From a virus: a stretch of 22,523 nt of DNA. The stretch covers positions 1 to 22,523 of IMG/VR virus record IMGVR_UViG_3300018083_000670; one strand, written 5' to 3'. Below, piece after piece: positions 1-22,523 of this stretch. The position numbers were made by a program, and so were the translations under genes. Every line of letters begins with the position of its first letter. The first letter of the stretch is position 1. The notes under the pieces were generated by a model. It saw nothing but the letters and a program-made list of their open reading frames with translations. It searched no databases and was not told the origin of the DNA.

Positions 1-2810
1 CGCGCCACCTTCGCGTCGTGGGCCGCCTTGGTGTCGCCCGCGGCCTCGGCGGCGTCCATAGGCGCCACGGCAGGCGGGGGCTCACCCTCGGCCTTGGGCT
101 GCTGCCCGGCCTCCCACGCGGCTTTCTGCTCGGGCGAGGCGAACTGATCGAAGCCCGCCTGGTCGCGCATGGTGCGGTTCAGTATCCGCGCCTGCTCGTC
201 CCCGAACGGGACAAACGAGTTGAGGGGCGTCCCGTCGGGCCCGATCTCGGTGAGCGTGACGCCGTCGTGCCCGGCCTCCTGCATCTTGCGCACGTAGGCC
301 TCGGCGCCGCCCGCCGCGTCAATCTCTGCGGCCAGCTTCTCGCGCGTGCCGACGTGGTAGGGGTTCTCGAGCGTGACCGCGGCGTCGTAGTCGATGGGCC
401 CGAAGTGCGCCGTGTCGCTATCGGTGAACCAGTGGCCGATGTCGTTGCGGCCAGCACTCGCGCCCGCCTCGCGGCTGAACGTGTCGAACGGCCGGTACGA
501 CGAATGCCGCAGCCGGCGCTCGCCGGGCTTGAGGTCCACGGGGCCGCGCGGCGCGACGGTGCCCCCGCCAGTGGCGGCGGCGTCCTGCTCGTCGGCCTGG
601 CGCAGCATCGCTTCGATGTCGTCCTCGGGCGCGGCGCCGCCCTGCGCGGCGTCGAGGTCGCGGGCGAGCGGGCCTTCGCCCAGGCCCTCGGCCGGCGCGG
701 CGCGTCCCTGGCGCGCTTCGATGTCGGCGACGGCCATGTACGCCGACAGTTCGCCCGACTGCTGCAACCGGGCGAGTTCGCGGAAGGCGTCGGCGCCGTG
801 CTCACGCTGGAGCTTCGCCATCGTGTTGCCGAGGCGGATCGTCGGGTCGGTCGTCGGATCGACCGTGCGACCCCCGCCGCCCTCGCCACTCGGCGCCACG
901 GGCTCGGGGGGACCGCCGCCTGGTGGGACACCGCCGCCCTCGCCACCACCACCGGGCGGCAGGCCGCCGCCGTCGCCGCCTGCGCGCGTGGGCACCCACT
1001 GCGTGCCGGTCCACATCATCTCGCGGCCCATGACGTTGACCGTCTCGCCGGGCTGCGGGATGCCCGCGCGCCGTTCCTCGCCGACCTGGCCGAGTAGCTC
1101 GCGCATCAGCGGGTCCTCGTCGGCCGCGCCCGTCGTGATCTGCGAGGGCGGGAACTCGGGCGGCGTGAACTCGTCGCCGGGCAGGGGCTCGGCCGCCGCC
1201 GCCTCTGGTGGCTGTGTGAGGCCGGTGGAGGATTCCACCTCCGGTGCCGGTCGACGGCCGAGAACCATCTGGTCGGGCCCTGGTTGCGGCTTCCGCATCG
1301 GCGGCGCCACGGCGGCGGCCAAGTCGGGGAACGCCTCATAGAAGCGGTCCACGGGCAACGTGAACGGGTCCTTGGTGCCTTGGAACCGGATCGTGACGGT
1401 CGTGCCGTCCGACGACACCTTGAGCGGGGCACCGAAGTTGCCGCCCGCGAGGTTGAGTTGCTTGGCGACCTTCAGCGGCACGTCCACGCTGAACGGGCCG
1501 GGCCCGCCCGCGGTGAGCGGTGGGCCGGGCTCGAAGCTGACGTCGGTCTGCGGGCCCTGCTCGAGCGCCATCCGCTGCACGTCGGCCTGCATCGGGTCCG
1601 CTTGGCCCAGCAGTTCCTCGAGCGTCGGGTAGGCCGGCGGCGGCGTGAAGGGCTCGGCGCCCTCGGCCACGGGACTCCCGGCCGGGTAGCGGCCGGCGGG
1701 CAGTTCGGGCGGGCCCACGGGGGGCTCGGGTCCGTACATCGGGAACGGGCCTTCGGGCGGGGGCTGCGCGAGCGGGTACGGGCCCACAGGCGGTGGCTGC
1801 GTCAGCGGGTTCGGTGCCGTCGGCGGGACGTTCTCGTAGGCGTTGATGCCGGGCGCGGGATGCCGCGAGCGCGGCGCCGGGCCGCGGATCGTGCCGCCGT
1901 TGGGCTGACGGTTGATGTTGTCGCCCATGTTGGCCTGGTTGCGCTGCCACGACTCCATCTCGCGCTCGGCCCAATACGGCGTCTTTTCGGGCGGCTGCGC
2001 GGCCTTGAAAGCGTCGATCTGCTGACGGAGCACCGTGTCGGCTTCGCCCTTGAGCCGCTGGCTGCGCGCCGCGAGCGCCGGCACCGCGCCGACCGCCGCG
2101 CCGGCTGCGCCACCGATGCCGGTCCCCAGGCCGAGGTCCAGCGCCACGCCAGTCGGGTCCCACGGGTCGCCACCCTCGATGCCGCGTGTCACCGCGCCCT
2201 GTGCGACGTTGAGCGCGCCGCCTTCGGCCGCACCCGCGGCACCAGTCACCGCGGCCGGCGCCAGCCACTCGCCGGCCGTGTCGACAAGCCGCTTCGCCAG
2301 GCTGGTCCCCGTGCGCTCGGCGAGCTTGGACAAGGGGCCGACGTAGTTGTTGAGCCCGCCGAACGCGGTCGCGATACCCAGCCGCGCGCCCAGCTTGCCG
2401 ATGTCCTGCCCGATGCCGGCACCGGGCGGCATCGTCTTGCCGTCGAGGTACGCAATGGACTCGAGGCCACTCGCAATCGCCTCGCCCCCGAACCCGGCCA
2501 GCGGGCCGCCGAAGCTGCTCGCGATGCGGATCGGCGTGGCGGCACTGTCGGCCAGCGCGCCGATGACGCCGACGTTCCGGTTCGGCTGCAACCGCTGCGC
2601 GTCCTCGAACGCGGCGGTGCGGGCCTGCGAGGCCTCGAGTTCGGCGAGCGTGCGGTTGGTGCGCTCGGGGTCGGCCGGCAGGCCGCCCGCGAACTCCTTG
2701 GTTTCCGCGAGCAGTTCATCCACGTCCCAAATGTCCTGGGGCTTCTGCGCGAGCTTGCGCTGGCGTAGGGCATCGAGAACCGGGGTGGTCGAGACGTAGG
2801 GTCGCGGCAT
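1..2810 (-). CDS. Giant polyvalent-type protein with ART-like domain (partial, runs off left edge)
   Basis: ATG at 2810, with AAGG ~9 nt upstream, opens a frame without a stop through position 3: at least 936 residues, C-terminus outside the window. Residues 1-80 are charged and helical. Residues ~80-250 are Gly/Ala-rich with zipper-like stretches (GLGTGIGGAAGAAVGAVPAL), possibly membrane-interacting. Then come a Pro-rich linker (~290-400), a mixed region (~405-540), a Gly/Pro linker (~608-640) and a helix (MAKLQREHGADAFRELARLQ). Residues ~765-878 resemble the ADP-ribosyltransferase-like domain of phage polyvalent proteins: RHSSYRPFDTF, IGHWFTDSDTAHFG, AAVTLENPYHV, YVRKMQEAGHDGVTL and SFVPFGDEQARIL in the family order. 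Such proteins are thought to be injected with DNA. The existence of the frame is certain; the ART assignment is pattern-based. Confidence 0.78.
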   Translation of the reverse strand, partial: MPRPYVSTTPVLDALRQRKLAQKPQDIWDVDELLAETKEFAGGLPADPERTNRTLAELEASQARTAAFEDAQRLQPNRNVGVIGALADSAATPIRIASSFGGPLAGFGGEAIASGLESIAYLDGKTMPPGAGIGQDIGKLGARLGIATAFGGLNNYVGPLSKLAERTGTSLAKRLVDTAGEWLAPAAVTGAAGAAEGGALNVAQGAVTRGIEGGDPWDPTGVALDLGLGTGIGGAAGAAVGAVPALAARSQRLKGEADTVLRQQIDAFKAAQPPEKTPYWAEREMESWQRNQANMGDNINRQPNGGTIRGPAPRSRHPAPGINAYENVPPTAPNPLTQPPPVGPYPLAQPPPEGPFPMYGPEPPVGPPELPAGRYPAGSPVAEGAEPFTPPPAYPTLEELLGQADPMQADVQRMALEQGPQTDVSFEPGPPLTAGGPGPFSVDVPLKVAKQLNLAGGNFGAPLKVSSDGTTVTIRFQGTKDPFTLPVDRFYEAFPDLAAAVAPPMRKPQPGPDQMVLGRRPAPEVESSTGLTQPPEAAAAEPLPGDEFTPPEFPPSQITTGAADEDPLMRELLGQVGEERRAGIPQPGETVNVMGREMMWTGTQWVPTRAGGDGGGLPPGGGGEGGGVPPGGGPPEPVAPSGEGGGGRTVDPTTDPTIRLGNTMAKLQREHGADAFRELARLQQSGELSAYMAVADIEARQGRAAPAEGLGEGPLARDLDAAQGGAAPEDDIEAMLRQADEQDAAATGGGTVAPRGPVDLKPGERRLRHSSYRPFDTFSREAGASAGRNDIGHWFTDSDTAHFGPIDYDAAVTLENPYHVGTREKLAAEIDAAGGAEAYVRKMQEAGHDGVTLTEIGPDGTPLNSFVPFGDEQARILNRTMRDQAGFDQFASPEQKAAWEAGQQPKAEGEPPPAVAPMDAAEAAGDTKAAHDAKVA

Positions 2811-2819
2811 GGGGGTGCC

Positions 2820-3839
2820 TTACTCGATCATCTTGTGCTTACGCATAATGTTGGCGGCCAGGTCGGGCGTGATGCCCATCTGGTCGGCGAACGCCTTCAC
2901 CTTGGCGAAGCGCACGGCCTCCCGCTGCCGCGCGGCCGGGTCGGCGCCGGCCTGACCCGTCGGGGGGCCGGGCTGCGCGGCGGCGTCGAGGGTGCCAGGC
3001 TCATTGGGGCGCTGTCCGAAGCCCAACCCCTCCGTGATGCGCGTAATGCCCTCGTCGTACCGCTTGCGCTGGTCGGCGGCCGGGTCTACCGCGGGCCGCG
3101 CCCCGCGCCACGACGCGGGCAAGAACGGGGTCGCCATCGCCAGGCCCGGCAGGAAGCGGTACGGGTCTTGGGCGGGCTTGATCGCCGGTAAGGCCGACCG
3201 CGCCGCCTGGAGCGCCTCGATCCCCCGGCCGCCGGATTCGAGCCGCTGCGAGGCTTCGTCGCTCGCCGCCTGGATGCGCTCGGCTTCGATCCGGGCCGCC
3301 GCCTCGAGTTGCGCCGCGCGCACGTCCGCGTCGGCGCCGTAGACGTCGGCCTCCGCGCGTGCGACCGCGCCCTGCTGCCCGGCGTTCGCCAGCGCCAATT
3401 TCTGCGCCTCTTCGTTGCGCCGGATGCGCGCCACGTCGGGGTCGTTGTAGACGTCCACCTTACCGCGCGTCTCGAGCGCCGACACGGCGTTACCGCGCCG
3501 CTGCTGCTCGAGGGCGTCGGCCTCGGCGAGCGCGTAATCCATCTGGCGCTCTTCCTGCGCGAGCTCGAGGTTCTGCCCGATGCGGTTGGTGCGGTAGGTG
3601 CGGCCGGCGGCGTTCATCGCTTCACTGGCGGCCTCGCGGCCACTGCTGAAGCCGCGCTGCTGGATGGCGTTGAGGGCAGGGTCGCTGATGCTGTCGACCC
3701 GGTTGGTGAGCATCGGCGAGCCCCCGCCGCCGCCTTCGACGGCGATGCCGTACTCGTTGATGTCGACGGTGGGCCGCTTGCGCGCACGCAACGCGGCGAT
3801 CCGGCTATTCCCCGCGCCGGTCGGGATGATTCCGTCCAT
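2820..3839 (-). CDS. Putative internal virion/ejection protein, long helical (339 aa)
   Basis: AGGGAGA lies about 6 nt before the ATG, which itself is inside the end of the 62-aa gene. Residues 1-85 are Gly-rich and flexible. Residues ~86-215 form an almost uninterrupted amphipathic helix rich in Ala, Glu, Gln and Arg (NLELAQEERQMDYALAEADA; LEAAARIEAERIQAASDEAS). A hydrophobic segment at ~226-243 (PYRFLPGLAMATPFLPASW) could insert into membrane, and the C-terminus carries a small helical domain (FADQMGITPDLAANIMRKHK). Such architecture fits proteins ejected to form a DNA channel. Placement right before the giant polyvalent protein supports one ejection cluster. Role inferred from layout and composition. 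Confidence 0.68.
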   Translation of the reverse strand: MDGIIPTGAGNSRIAALRARKRPTVDINEYGIAVEGGGGGSPMLTNRVDSISDPALNAIQQRGFSSGREAASEAMNAAGRTYRTNRIGQNLELAQEERQMDYALAEADALEQQRRGNAVSALETRGKVDVYNDPDVARIRRNEEAQKLALANAGQQGAVARAEADVYGADADVRAAQLEAAARIEAERIQAASDEASQRLESGGRGIEALQAARSALPAIKPAQDPYRFLPGLAMATPFLPASWRGARPAVDPAADQRKRYDEGITRITEGLGFGQRPNEPGTLDAAAQPGPPTGQAGADPAARQREAVRFAKVKAFADQMGITPDLAANIMRKHKMIE

Positions 3840-3994: not shown

Positions 3995-4618
3995 TCACCT
4001 CCGCGCGGTCAACGCTCCCATAGCGGTCGGCGCGGCCGGCGCGACCGCCGACATCTGTGGCTGCGCCTGCTGCGCGAGCATCATCTGCCGCTTCTGTTCG
4101 GCAAGCCACGCATCGCCTTCGGTCTGGATGCGCTGCTGTTCGCGGACACGGGCCGCTTCCGCCGCGGCGGCCTGCTGCGCCTTCGCCAGCGCGTCCCCCT
4201 TGCGCGCGTAGGACTGCGCACTCACGTCCTGGAGTTGGCGCCGGCCCTGTCCGGTCATTTCGGGCGCGGGCGGGGCGCCATAGTTGCCTTGGGTCTTGCC
4301 GCCACTCGCGGCGAGGTTCTTGAGCTTCATCGCGGTCTGCAACAACTGCACGTCGTTGCCGCCGCCGCGATTCAGCCAGCCCGGCGTCCCCGTGCCCGCG
4401 CTGATGGTGGGAATGCCGCCCATGCGGTTGTTCTGCTCGCGCTTCTTCTCGCGCTGATTCCACGCGGCTTTCGCGGCGGCGTTGTAGTCGCCACCCGCGT
4501 CCTCCGCGTAGCGTTGGACCATGCCCGCCGTGGGGTCGTCGTAGGCTTCGCCGAACTGCAAGGTATCGGCGCGACCCTGTAACGCCTGCAACGCACCGGG
4601 GAGGTTGAAGGCTGGCAT
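3995..4618 (-). CDS. Putative internal virion/ejection protein (207 aa)
   Basis: The gene begins 1 nt after the previous stop. The N-terminal half has short helices with polar linkers (LPGALQALQGRADTLQFGEA; AAAKAAWNQREKKREQNNR) and a Gly-rich middle. Residues ~125-185 form a long Ala/Gln/Arg/Glu helix (KGDALAKAQQAAAAEAARVR continuing to EQKRQMMLAQQAQ), typical of ejection proteins that line the head or form a periplasmic conduit. The end is Ala/Pro-rich. It is probably a partner of the flanking 294-aa and 339-aa proteins, judging from shared composition and tight spacing. No enzymatic motif is visible. Confidence 0.64.
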   Translation of the reverse strand: MPAFNLPGALQALQGRADTLQFGEAYDDPTAGMVQRYAEDAGGDYNAAAKAAWNQREKKREQNNRMGGIPTISAGTGTPGWLNRGGGNDVQLLQTAMKLKNLAASGGKTQGNYGAPPAPEMTGQGRRQLQDVSAQSYARKGDALAKAQQAAAAEAARVREQQRIQTEGDAWLAEQKRQMMLAQQAQPQMSAVAPAAPTAMGALTARR

Positions 4619-4619
4619 G

Positions 4620-5504
4620 TCAGTAGCTCTTCGGCATGAACATGCCGAACAAGGACGGGATGCTCGAGAGCATCGGGTTCTGGTACGGGTTCAGGAGCGC
4701 GTTGTAGTCCTGCCCGCGCTGCTGGATGGCGCCCTGGTAGTCGCCCGACCGCACCCCGAGGTCCTGCCCCCGCTGCGTCAGGCCCGCCGCCAGGTTGCGG
4801 TCATCGATCTGGTCGTGCCGCGCCATCGCGTCGAGCGCCTGGTCGCGGACGACGTCGCCCAAGCCGCTCTGTGTCTGCGCGGTGATCTCGCGGGCGTCCT
4901 TGGCTTCGAGCCCGCTGTTCGCGCGCCCGCCCGCCGTGCTGCGATCCTTGAGCGCGGCCATCGCACCGCCGCCGATCTGCCCGATGCGTTCCTTGGCGCG
5001 GCCGAACTCGGCCTGCTCCGCGGCGGTGCGGTCGGCCATGAGGGTGGGCACCTCGCGCGGCGGCGCGGGGCCCGGCGACTCGCGGCCTATCGGCTGCTGG
5101 GGCCCGCCCATCACGCCGAACTGCTTCATCAGCGCCATGATGCGCTGCATGTTCAGGTCGACGATGTTGGTGCCTTCGCCGCCCGTCCAGTCGGTGCCGC
5201 CCCACGGATTCGCTTGCGGCGTGTAGGGGGTCGCCATCCCGGTTGGGTCGACGTCCCACGTCTTACCGGTGGGCGAGACGCCGGGGACCGGCGCGGTGCC
5301 GGGCGCCTGCCCGTAGCCGCCCGTCGGGTTCGCGCCGACGTTGGTGAATCCACCGGGATTGACCCCTCCGGTGGTCGTGCCGCCAGCCGGCGTCTGCCCA
5401 ATCGGATTGGTCCGCAGTGGGGGCGCCGTCGGGGGCTGATAGGTGCCCCCCCAGCCTGACCCGGCGAAGCCTGGACGCTGGATGCCGTTGCCTGTGTAGC
5501 CCAT
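4620..5504 (-). CDS. Putative internal virion/ejection protein (294 aa)
   Basis: The ATG is preceded by GAGGTGA at 3 nt. Residues 1-~110 are Gly/Pro/Thr-rich low complexity (GGTTTGGVNPGGFTNVGANP and similar), followed by a helix at ~118-135 (VDLNMQRIMALMKQFGVMGG). Residues ~155-270 are polar helices rich in Gln, Arg, Asp and Ala (GLGDVVRDQALDAMARHDQI). The C-terminus ends with a hydrophobic patch (LSSIPSLFGMFMPKSY). Genes after the fibre in podoviruses commonly encode proteins packaged inside the head and ejected with DNA. Composition and position support that role, but no family is recognised. The next gene starts 1 nt after this stop. Confidence 0.66.
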   Translation of the reverse strand: MGYTGNGIQRPGFAGSGWGGTYQPPTAPPLRTNPIGQTPAGGTTTGGVNPGGFTNVGANPTGGYGQAPGTAPVPGVSPTGKTWDVDPTGMATPYTPQANPWGGTDWTGGEGTNIVDLNMQRIMALMKQFGVMGGPQQPIGRESPGPAPPREVPTLMADRTAAEQAEFGRAKERIGQIGGGAMAALKDRSTAGGRANSGLEAKDAREITAQTQSGLGDVVRDQALDAMARHDQIDDRNLAAGLTQRGQDLGVRSGDYQGAIQQRGQDYNALLNPYQNPMLSSIPSLFGMFMPKSY

Positions 5505-21834: not shown

Positions 21835-22447
21835 GCTCCCCGCCGCGTGGCGCCAGGTCCAGCCGATGCGCCTTGGGCACGCCCACCACGCCCTCGAGCT
21901 TGGGCGCGGTGCCGCCCACCGAAATCATCACGCCGTTGGCGTCGACAATCTGCACGTTCAACTGCGTGGGCAACCGGCCATCGACGACGTCGCCGCCGTT
22001 GCGCAACACCCCGACCCCGCGCAACGTCGCCAGGCCCGCCTCGAGGTTGTGCTGCTTGAGGTGCTCGTGCAACGTGTCGACCGCCATGTCGACCAAGTGG
22101 TCCTCGACAAAGGCCCGCGCCGCGTCGAGGGCCGGGAACGTCAGCTTGCGCGCCCGCCCCTCGGCCTGCCACGTCCGCAGCGTCCCGGTCGCCACCCCCA
22201 GCTTGCGCGCCACCCGCGCCAGCGGCAGCCCGTTGGCCCGGTACACCTGGACCGCCAGCAGCCGCTCGCGCAACTCCGCGTCGGTCAGCGCCGTGACCCC
22301 CGCAAAGTCGGCCACCGTCATCTGTGGCGGCTTGCGCAGCCCCTTCCGGTTGCCGGGGTCCACCGGGCCCCGCTCCCCGCGCTTGCTCTGGTTGAGTACC
22401 ACCGAGGCCTGGCCCCCGACGCCGAACCGATGCTCCCGACTCCCCAC
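21827..22447 (-). CDS. terS: Putative terminase small subunit (HTH DNA-binding)
   Basis: The 206-aa product sits directly upstream of the large terminase, where the small subunit that recognises phage DNA for packaging is usually encoded. Residues ~74-98 form a helix-turn-helix of the HTH_23/terminase type (LPLARVARKLGVATGTLRTW). An Ala/Leu-rich helical stretch follows (~105-145), a plausible oligomerisation core, and then a beta-like tail. Residues 1-42 are basic and look disordered. The assigned start is a GTG without a well-spaced Shine-Dalgarno; ATG at 22321 (Met43) is an alternative, and the frame may be open further upstream into the corrupted contig end. The gene overlaps the large terminase by 8 nt. 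The role rests on position plus the HTH. A generic phage regulator is the alternative, but is less likely here. Confidence 0.75.
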   Translation of the reverse strand: MGSREHRFGVGGQASVVLNQSKRGERGPVDPGNRKGLRKPPQMTVADFAGVTALTDAELRERLLAVQVYRANGLPLARVARKLGVATGTLRTWQAEGRARKLTFPALDAARAFVEDHLVDMAVDTLHEHLKQHNLEAGLATLRGVGVLRNGGDVVDGRLPTQLNVQIVDANGVMISVGGTAPKLEGVVGVPKAHRLDLAPRGGELV

Positions 22448-22455
22448 CTTCCGCG

Positions 22456-22523
22456 GTACGTCCCCCCCCCCCCCCCGCCCCCAGACCCCCCCCGACCCCC
22501 CCCCCCTCCCCCCGCCCCCCCCC
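22456..22523. other. Low-complexity poly-C contig end (probable artefact)
   Basis: The final ~68 bases are runs of C broken by a few A, T and G. Read on the coding (minus) strand this is poly-G. Long poly-G is a known product of two-colour Illumina chemistry when signal is lost, and contig ends are where such reads accumulate. No gene, promoter or structured site can be read here. The true upstream region of the small terminase gene is therefore probably missing or corrupted. Confidence 0.75.

What the first reader, a model, noticed from the sequence alone, without database searches (positions are those of the whole stretch)
1..2810. Large ejected-type protein with an ADP-ribosyltransferase-like (ART-PolyVal type) domain
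Seen: one uninterrupted minus-strand frame of at least 936 codons, with no stop in the window, directly after the ejection-type genes. Residues ~769-878 carry an H-S-S-Y start strand, a W-F-T-D-S-D-x-A-x-x-F-G segment, a V-x-L-x-N-P strand, a G-H-D-G-V element and a final F-V-P-F strand followed by R-I-L. Known: polyvalent proteins of phages and conjugative elements carry such ART-like domains in long, Pro/Gly-linked chains and are thought to enter the new host with DNA and modify host or defence targets. Inference: this is an injected effector, joined to a Gly/Ala-zipper region that could help cross the membrane.
Basis: partly seen in the sequence, partly recalled or inferred. Interest (0 to 1): 0.78.

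Follow-up and report, generated by a model that had tools for sequence, protein, structure and literature searches.

The report
Phage giant protein with ADP-ribosyltransferase domain
This is the front third of a 2,658-residue phage protein, encoded at the end of the virion genes, that carries an enzyme-like domain of the kind used to chemically tag host proteins; it is a new and diverged member of an already described class of multi-domain phage proteins, predicted to be injected with the DNA.

Summary
Window 3-2810 (-) is the first 936 codons of an ORF that a near-identical longer contig completes to 2,658 residues. Residues about 764-882 form an ADP-ribosyltransferase (ART) domain. The sequence evidence is weak on its own: Pfam ART-PolyVal is the only family found, at E 0.02 and below its cut-off. 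Three further tests support it. The only three phage-collection hits to the domain lie inside ART-PolyVal-type domains of giant phage proteins. An ART profile built without the window beats 1000 shuffles, 25.2 against at most 6.9 bits. The AlphaFold model (pLDDT 84) matches PARP catalytic domains; its alignment contained ART relatives.

The invariant His769 and Asp849 are kept. Tyr is replaced by Trp (W794) and the PARP-type Glu by Ser (S865), but both substitutions occur in accepted ART-PolyVal domains. The full protein also has a ParB/Noc-like domain that Pfam and NCBIfam do not detect. The closest sibling protein lacks the ART block between matching anchors, so it behaves as a swappable cassette.

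Most likely this is a virion-packaged polyvalent protein whose ART modifies host proteins early in infection. Packaging, injection, catalysis and membrane crossing are untested. It is a new, diverged member of a known kind.

The parts
3..2810 (-). First 936 codons of a 2,658-aa polyvalent-type protein; the stop lies outside the window
2166..2777 (-). N-terminal module, residues 12-215, 47% identical to the sibling protein L059
   Evidence: no other homologue in the loci held
2031..2573 (-). Gly/Ala-rich stretch, residues 80-260; weak GxxxG-like excess, no clear transmembrane segment
1266..1694 (-). Pro/Gly-rich linker with a small module, residues 373-515, weakly shared with L059 (27%)
573..656 (-). 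Left anchor, residues 719-746 (...DDIEAMLRQADEQDAAA), shared with L059 624-653; the non-shared block starts right after it
165..521 (-). ADP-ribosyltransferase domain, residues 764-882
   Evidence: Pfam ART-PolyVal E 0.02, AlphaFold and Foldseek, shuffle test
504..506 (-). His769, motif I (H-S-S), invariant in 23 of 23 compared ARTs
429..431 (-). Trp794, motif II position (Tyr in most relatives; Trp in three others)
   Evidence: the three others are over the Pfam cut-off
264..266 (-). Asp849 of G-H-D-G-V, invariant in every compared row that has the region (22 of 22)
216..218 (-). Ser865, position of the PARP-type catalytic Glu
2820..3839 (-). Upstream 339-aa ORF, ejection-type by position; its N-terminus shares a short motif with the giant ORF
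3995..4618 (-). 207-aa Ala/Gln-rich ORF upstream, ejection-type by position only
4620..5504 (-). 294-aa Gly-rich ORF upstream, ejection-type by position only

Best explanation
The ORF encodes a phage polyvalent protein of 2,658 residues made late, with the virion proteins, packaged in or near the capsid and delivered with the DNA. Its ART domain (residues 764-882) then transfers ADP-ribose from NAD+ to a host protein early in infection, much as injected T4 Alt does. A ParB/Noc-like domain (residues about 1620-1790 of the full protein) binds a nucleotide and possibly DNA. Shown: the ORF, the ART and ParB/Noc-like folds by sequence and model, retention of His769 and Asp849, and the position after the virion genes. 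Inferred: packaging, injection, ADP-ribosylation and the target.
For: ART: the only Pfam family returned for the piece is ART-PolyVal, E 0.02. The only three tblastn hits in 2.3 Gb of phage records (E 1-7) lie in giant proteins inside ART-PolyVal domains; two score 1e-19 and 8e-21 and the third aligns with them throughout. The shuffle test gives 25.2 against at most 6.9 bits. Model pLDDT 84.2, pTM 0.79; all 50 listed PDB matches are PARP-family ARTs, best probability 1.00; viral matches are largely ART-PolyVal. H and D invariant. Polyvalent: full ORF 2,658 aa; second domain modelled at pLDDT 93.4 and matched to Noc/ParB, probability 1.0. Context: terminase, portal, capsid, SU10-type adaptor and internal virion protein genes upstream. 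ART near residues 660-830 of a roughly 3,100-3,200-aa protein next to an annotated lysozyme in ctQRb9 and in the matching place in DC33. Published precedent: PMC5512222 (polyvalent ARTs, T4 Alt), PMC12633501 (ejected 3,500-residue N4 vRNAP).
Against: Sequence scores stay below the Pfam gathering cut-off (16.1 against 31.2 bits), and the genome-wide family search finds nothing in G000 or G001. The AlphaFold alignment contained ART-PolyVal relatives, so the model is not independent of that alignment, and Foldseek E-values against the PDB are only 3e-3 or worse with TM about 0.45. W794 and S865 could mean altered or lost catalysis. No virion proteomics. The sibling phage does without the ART, so it is not essential for the particle.
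Confidence: 0.65

Rival explanations
1. A catalytically dead ART: the fold is kept as an NAD+/ADP-ribose or protein-binding module, or as a decoy, inside an ejected protein.
For: W794 and S865 replace two of the three PARP-type catalytic residues; the score is far below the family cut-off.
Against: His769 and Asp849 are invariant across all comparable relatives. Trp at motif II and Ser at motif III occur in domains well over the Pfam cut-off. Several human PARPs lack the Glu as well (H-Y-I/L/Y, classed as mono-ADP-ribosylating in the table of PMC7955679).
Confidence: 0.18
2. The giant protein is mainly a structural ejection or tape-type protein forming the DNA channel; the ART and ParB/Noc-like parts are accessory cassettes of little consequence.
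For: Position after the virion genes; the N-terminus and C-terminus are the parts conserved with L059 (47% and 63%) while the ART block is missing there; Gly/Ala-rich N-terminus.
Against: The ParB/Noc-like core is also conserved and keeps its invariant GHQR and N/D positions across 24 proteins; ART residues are kept against extensive sequence drift.
Confidence: 0.07
3. The protein is not packaged but is made late in the producing cell and acts there, for example to modify host proteins during lysis or assembly.
For: No direct virion evidence exists; late co-transcription fits both readings.
Against: Analogous giant proteins (N4 vRNAP) are packaged and ejected (PMC12633501); polyvalent proteins as a class are linked to early-phase delivery (PMC5512222).
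Confidence: 0.1

Closest known systems
ART-PolyVal (Pfam PF18760; Tox-ART-HYD2 clade) in phage polyvalent proteins (Iyer et al. 2017, PMC5512222)
   Same: ART fold; invariant His on strand 1; conserved GxDG; NP strand; set in a giant late-gene protein; the phage-collection hits are members
   Different: Below the Pfam cut-off; Trp for the strand-2 Tyr; Ser at the PARP-type Glu position; lacks the segment between motif II and the NP strand that most relatives carry
ART of L151 (IMGVR_UViG_3300010885_013691), a >=2,526-aa protein with HELFH and ParB-like (EGQHR) motifs
   Same: Closest ART found: 43% identity over 44 residues including EIDAAGGAE and GHDG; also a P-F in the motif-III strand and no Glu there; same domain company
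   Different: Different motif II (H-Y); large insert before the motif-III strand; carries a zincin-like HExxH that P0002 lacks
Sibling giant protein L059 (IMGVR_UViG_3300015360_000069, 2,209 aa)
   Same: Colinear N-terminus, linker modules, ParB/Noc-like domain and C-terminus (47-63% identity)
   Different: No ART: 134 residues stand where P0002 has about 500
Phage T4 Alt
   Same: Works-like comparison: phage ART delivered with the DNA, modifies host RNA polymerase
   Different: Different ART family (Alt/VIP2); not a polyvalent protein; target here unknown
Coliphage N4 virion RNA polymerase gp50 (PMC12633501)
   Same: Works-like comparison: ~3,500-residue beads-on-a-string protein ejected through the tail
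   Different: RNA polymerase; no homology found here

Membership tests
ADP-ribosyltransferase (ART) superfamily | ART fold | tested here: met
   AlphaFold pLDDT 84.2, pTM 0.79; all 50 listed PDB matches are PARP-family. Caveat: the alignment contained ART relatives
ART-PolyVal PF18760 / Tox-ART-HYD2 | Pfam score above the gathering cut-off (31.2 bits) | tested here: not met
   16.1 bits, E 0.02 for the 117-aa piece; no match for the whole protein
ART-PolyVal PF18760 / Tox-ART-HYD2 | His on strand 1 | tested here: met
   H769, 23 of 23 rows
ART-PolyVal PF18760 / Tox-ART-HYD2 | Tyr on strand 2 | tested here: not met
   W794; but Trp also occurs in three domains over the Pfam cut-off: DflJY45, cr10_1, USP_18
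ART-PolyVal PF18760 / Tox-ART-HYD2 | Asp on strand 5 | tested here: inconclusive
   D849 of GHDGV is invariant, but the papers read here do not show which Asp is meant
PARP-type H-Y-E ARTs | Catalytic Glu in motif III | tested here: not met
   S865; not kept in many ART-PolyVal domains either
Polyvalent proteins | Several functionally unrelated domains in one large polypeptide | tested here: met
   ART plus ParB/Noc-like domain in 2,658 aa
Polyvalent proteins | Encoded with phage late/virion genes | tested here: met
Polyvalent proteins | Packaged and delivered with the DNA | not testable with these tools
   needs virion proteomics or a translocation assay
DdrB-like ParB (PF18763) | Match to the DdrB-ParB profile | tested here: not met
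   no match in G001 or in related records; the domain matches Noc/ParB by fold instead

The most novel reading that the evidence does not exclude
The ParB/Noc-like domain is a nucleotide-gated clamp that loads onto the incoming phage genome and holds the ART there, so that host proteins arriving at the phage DNA (RNA polymerase, nucleases, defence sensors) are ADP-ribosylated locally. The ART block is a cassette exchanged between sibling phages to suit the host.
Probability: 0.08. Interest if true: 0.7.

Novelty: new member of a known kind. Interest (0 to 1): 0.38.

Why it matters
It shows that a polyvalent protein can be invisible to Pfam and PHROGs over its full 2,658 residues and still carry two recognisable effector-type domains, and it supplies a natural pair of sibling phages, with and without the ART, for asking what the ART adds to infection. 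The class itself and the general idea were described in 2017.

Tried and rejected
Peptide-pattern searches with the window ART or the ParB region alone found only the same virus. tblastn of the first 936 aa in phages and of the ART in plasmids: nothing useful. The genome-contig scans found no relative, so the host is unassigned. The idea that Tyr and Glu are lost together (seen in 18 rows) was rejected when wider sampling broke it, e.g. DflJY45 has Trp with Glu and a Helicobacter prophage has Tyr with Thr. An MPTase (HExxH) for self-cleavage was sought and not found. DdrB-ParB membership was tested and not met. No unusual G+C or third-position G+C in the ART block that would mark recent import. 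The HMM score of 104.5 bits is not evidence for the ART, because that model includes the window; it only shows that L059 lacks one. The phmmer hits are not independent, because most of those loci were fetched with the window in the query.

Full report
What was checked. The window is a 22.5 kb virus record. ORF 3-2810 on the minus strand opens with ATG and runs 936 codons off the window edge. A 51.6 kb IMG/VR contig of the same virus (19,530 of 19,540 bases identical over the compared stretch) completes it to 2,658 residues, L003:5784-13760.

Is the domain an ART? HMMER against Pfam gives a single family for the piece, ART-PolyVal, at E 0.02, below its gathering score; the whole protein gives no Pfam hit. 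tblastn of the 117-residue piece against 2.3 Gb of phage records returns only three hits even at E up to 10. All three fall inside giant proteins. In ctQRb9 and DC33 the hit lies inside an ART-PolyVal domain of E 1e-19 and 8e-21; the third, phage zth2-2, aligns with those two throughout. In ctQRb9 the giant gene adjoins an annotated lysozyme; in DC33 the neighbours are unnamed. An HMM made from 16 relatives without the window scores 25.2 bits on the full protein at residues 811-855, against a best of 6.9 bits in 1000 block shuffles. AlphaFold on the alignment gives pLDDT 84.2 and pTM 0.79. Foldseek against the PDB lists 50 best matches, all PARP-family catalytic domains, best E 3e-3; against viral models it lists mainly ART-PolyVal proteins. 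The alignment fed to AlphaFold contained ART relatives, so this is support and not independent proof. The closest relative, L151 (43% over 44 residues), independently matches ART-PolyVal over most of the profile (E 0.009).

Catalytic residues. Across 23 ARTs, including 12 from the annotated phage collection, His769 is invariant and Asp849 of GHDGV is present in every row that has the region. The motif-II position is Tyr, Trp, Phe, His or Ser; the window has Trp, as do DflJY45, cr10_1 and USP_18, which are over the Pfam cut-off. The PARP-type Glu position varies among relatives (Glu, Gln, Ser, Thr, Val, Asp and others); the window has Ser, as does pT24, which is over the cut-off. Iyer et al. 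(PMC5512222) define the polyvalent ARTs by H on strand 1, Y on strand 2 and D on strand 5. The window keeps H and probably D, not Y. I therefore call it an ART closely related to ART-PolyVal, and do not file it as a formal member.

The rest of the protein. Residues about 1620-1790 form a second domain with an invariant GHQR motif across 24 viral proteins. AlphaFold gives pLDDT 93.4 and Foldseek matches Noc and ParB N-terminal domains with probability 1.0. Pfam and NCBIfam do not detect it, and the DdrB-ParB profile does not match. Relatives of this domain occur in giant proteins with LPD domains, helicases, methyltransferases and GNATs. Of 48 related records searched, 6 also carry an ART-PolyVal match.

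A cassette. The sibling protein L059 (2,209 aa) is colinear with P0002 at the N-terminus (47%), the ParB/Noc-like region and the C-terminus. Two anchors flank the difference: P0002 719-746 with L059 624-653, and P0002 1245-1300 with L059 788-844. Between them P0002 has about 500 residues, including the ART, and L059 has 134 with no ART. Which state is ancestral cannot be told from two sequences.

Mechanism. The best-supported account is a polyvalent effector made with the virion proteins, delivered with the DNA, whose ART modifies host proteins early. Support for delivery is by position and by precedent (T4 Alt, N4 vRNAP; PMC5512222, PMC12633501), not by data on this virus. The Gly/Ala-rich N-terminus shows a modest GxxxG-like excess and no clear transmembrane segment, so the membrane-crossing proposal is open.

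Verdict. Observation confirmed; interpretation partly supported; new member of a known kind (polyvalent phage proteins), with a diverged ART and a ParB-type domain not covered by the family libraries used.

Noticed in passing
window 2739-2780 and 3768-3806 (N-termini of ORFs 3-2810 and 2820-3839); also L059, L038, L025, L030, L011, L008: The two adjacent proteins share a short N-terminal motif (VLDALRQRKLAQKP and SRIAALRARKRPT), also in L059; other ART-PolyVal giant proteins carry duplicated short N-terminal motifs (e.g. NPFLDTLKNR...NPFLDTLKKR). A packaging or docking signal is possible.
   Followed up: partly
P0002 residues near 27, 397, 566, 731, 1065 (first four start at window 2732, 1622, 1115, 620, minus strand): A short helical motif of the type LEELLxQAD recurs along the Pro-rich linkers, once directly before the ART; a loose pattern count is 3 against 0.23 expected from shuffles.
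   Followed up: partly
L003:10620-11196 (P0002 residues about 1613-1804): ParB/Noc-like domain with invariant GHQR; 306 candidate viral stretches encode a relative, yet no Pfam or NCBIfam model detects it here.
   Followed up: partly
L003:14724-15425: Alpha/beta hydrolase-like ORF (AHSHGG motif, Pfam Abhydrolase_1 E 2.6e-5) downstream of the giant gene; possibly a lysis esterase.
   Followed up: no
L138:12119-13036 and L138:18151-19170: RecT and YqaJ recombination genes in the left arm of the longer contig.
   Followed up: no
window about 22440-22523: The right end is nearly pure C, as is the end of the longer contig: probable assembly or sequencing artefact; ORFs called there are not trustworthy.
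   Followed up: partly
PQ492659.1 (Limnohabitans phage DC33), L009: The record's taxonomy line says Inoviridae, but it is a 39 kb genome with a tailed-phage-like late gene layout; probably mislabelled.
   Followed up: no
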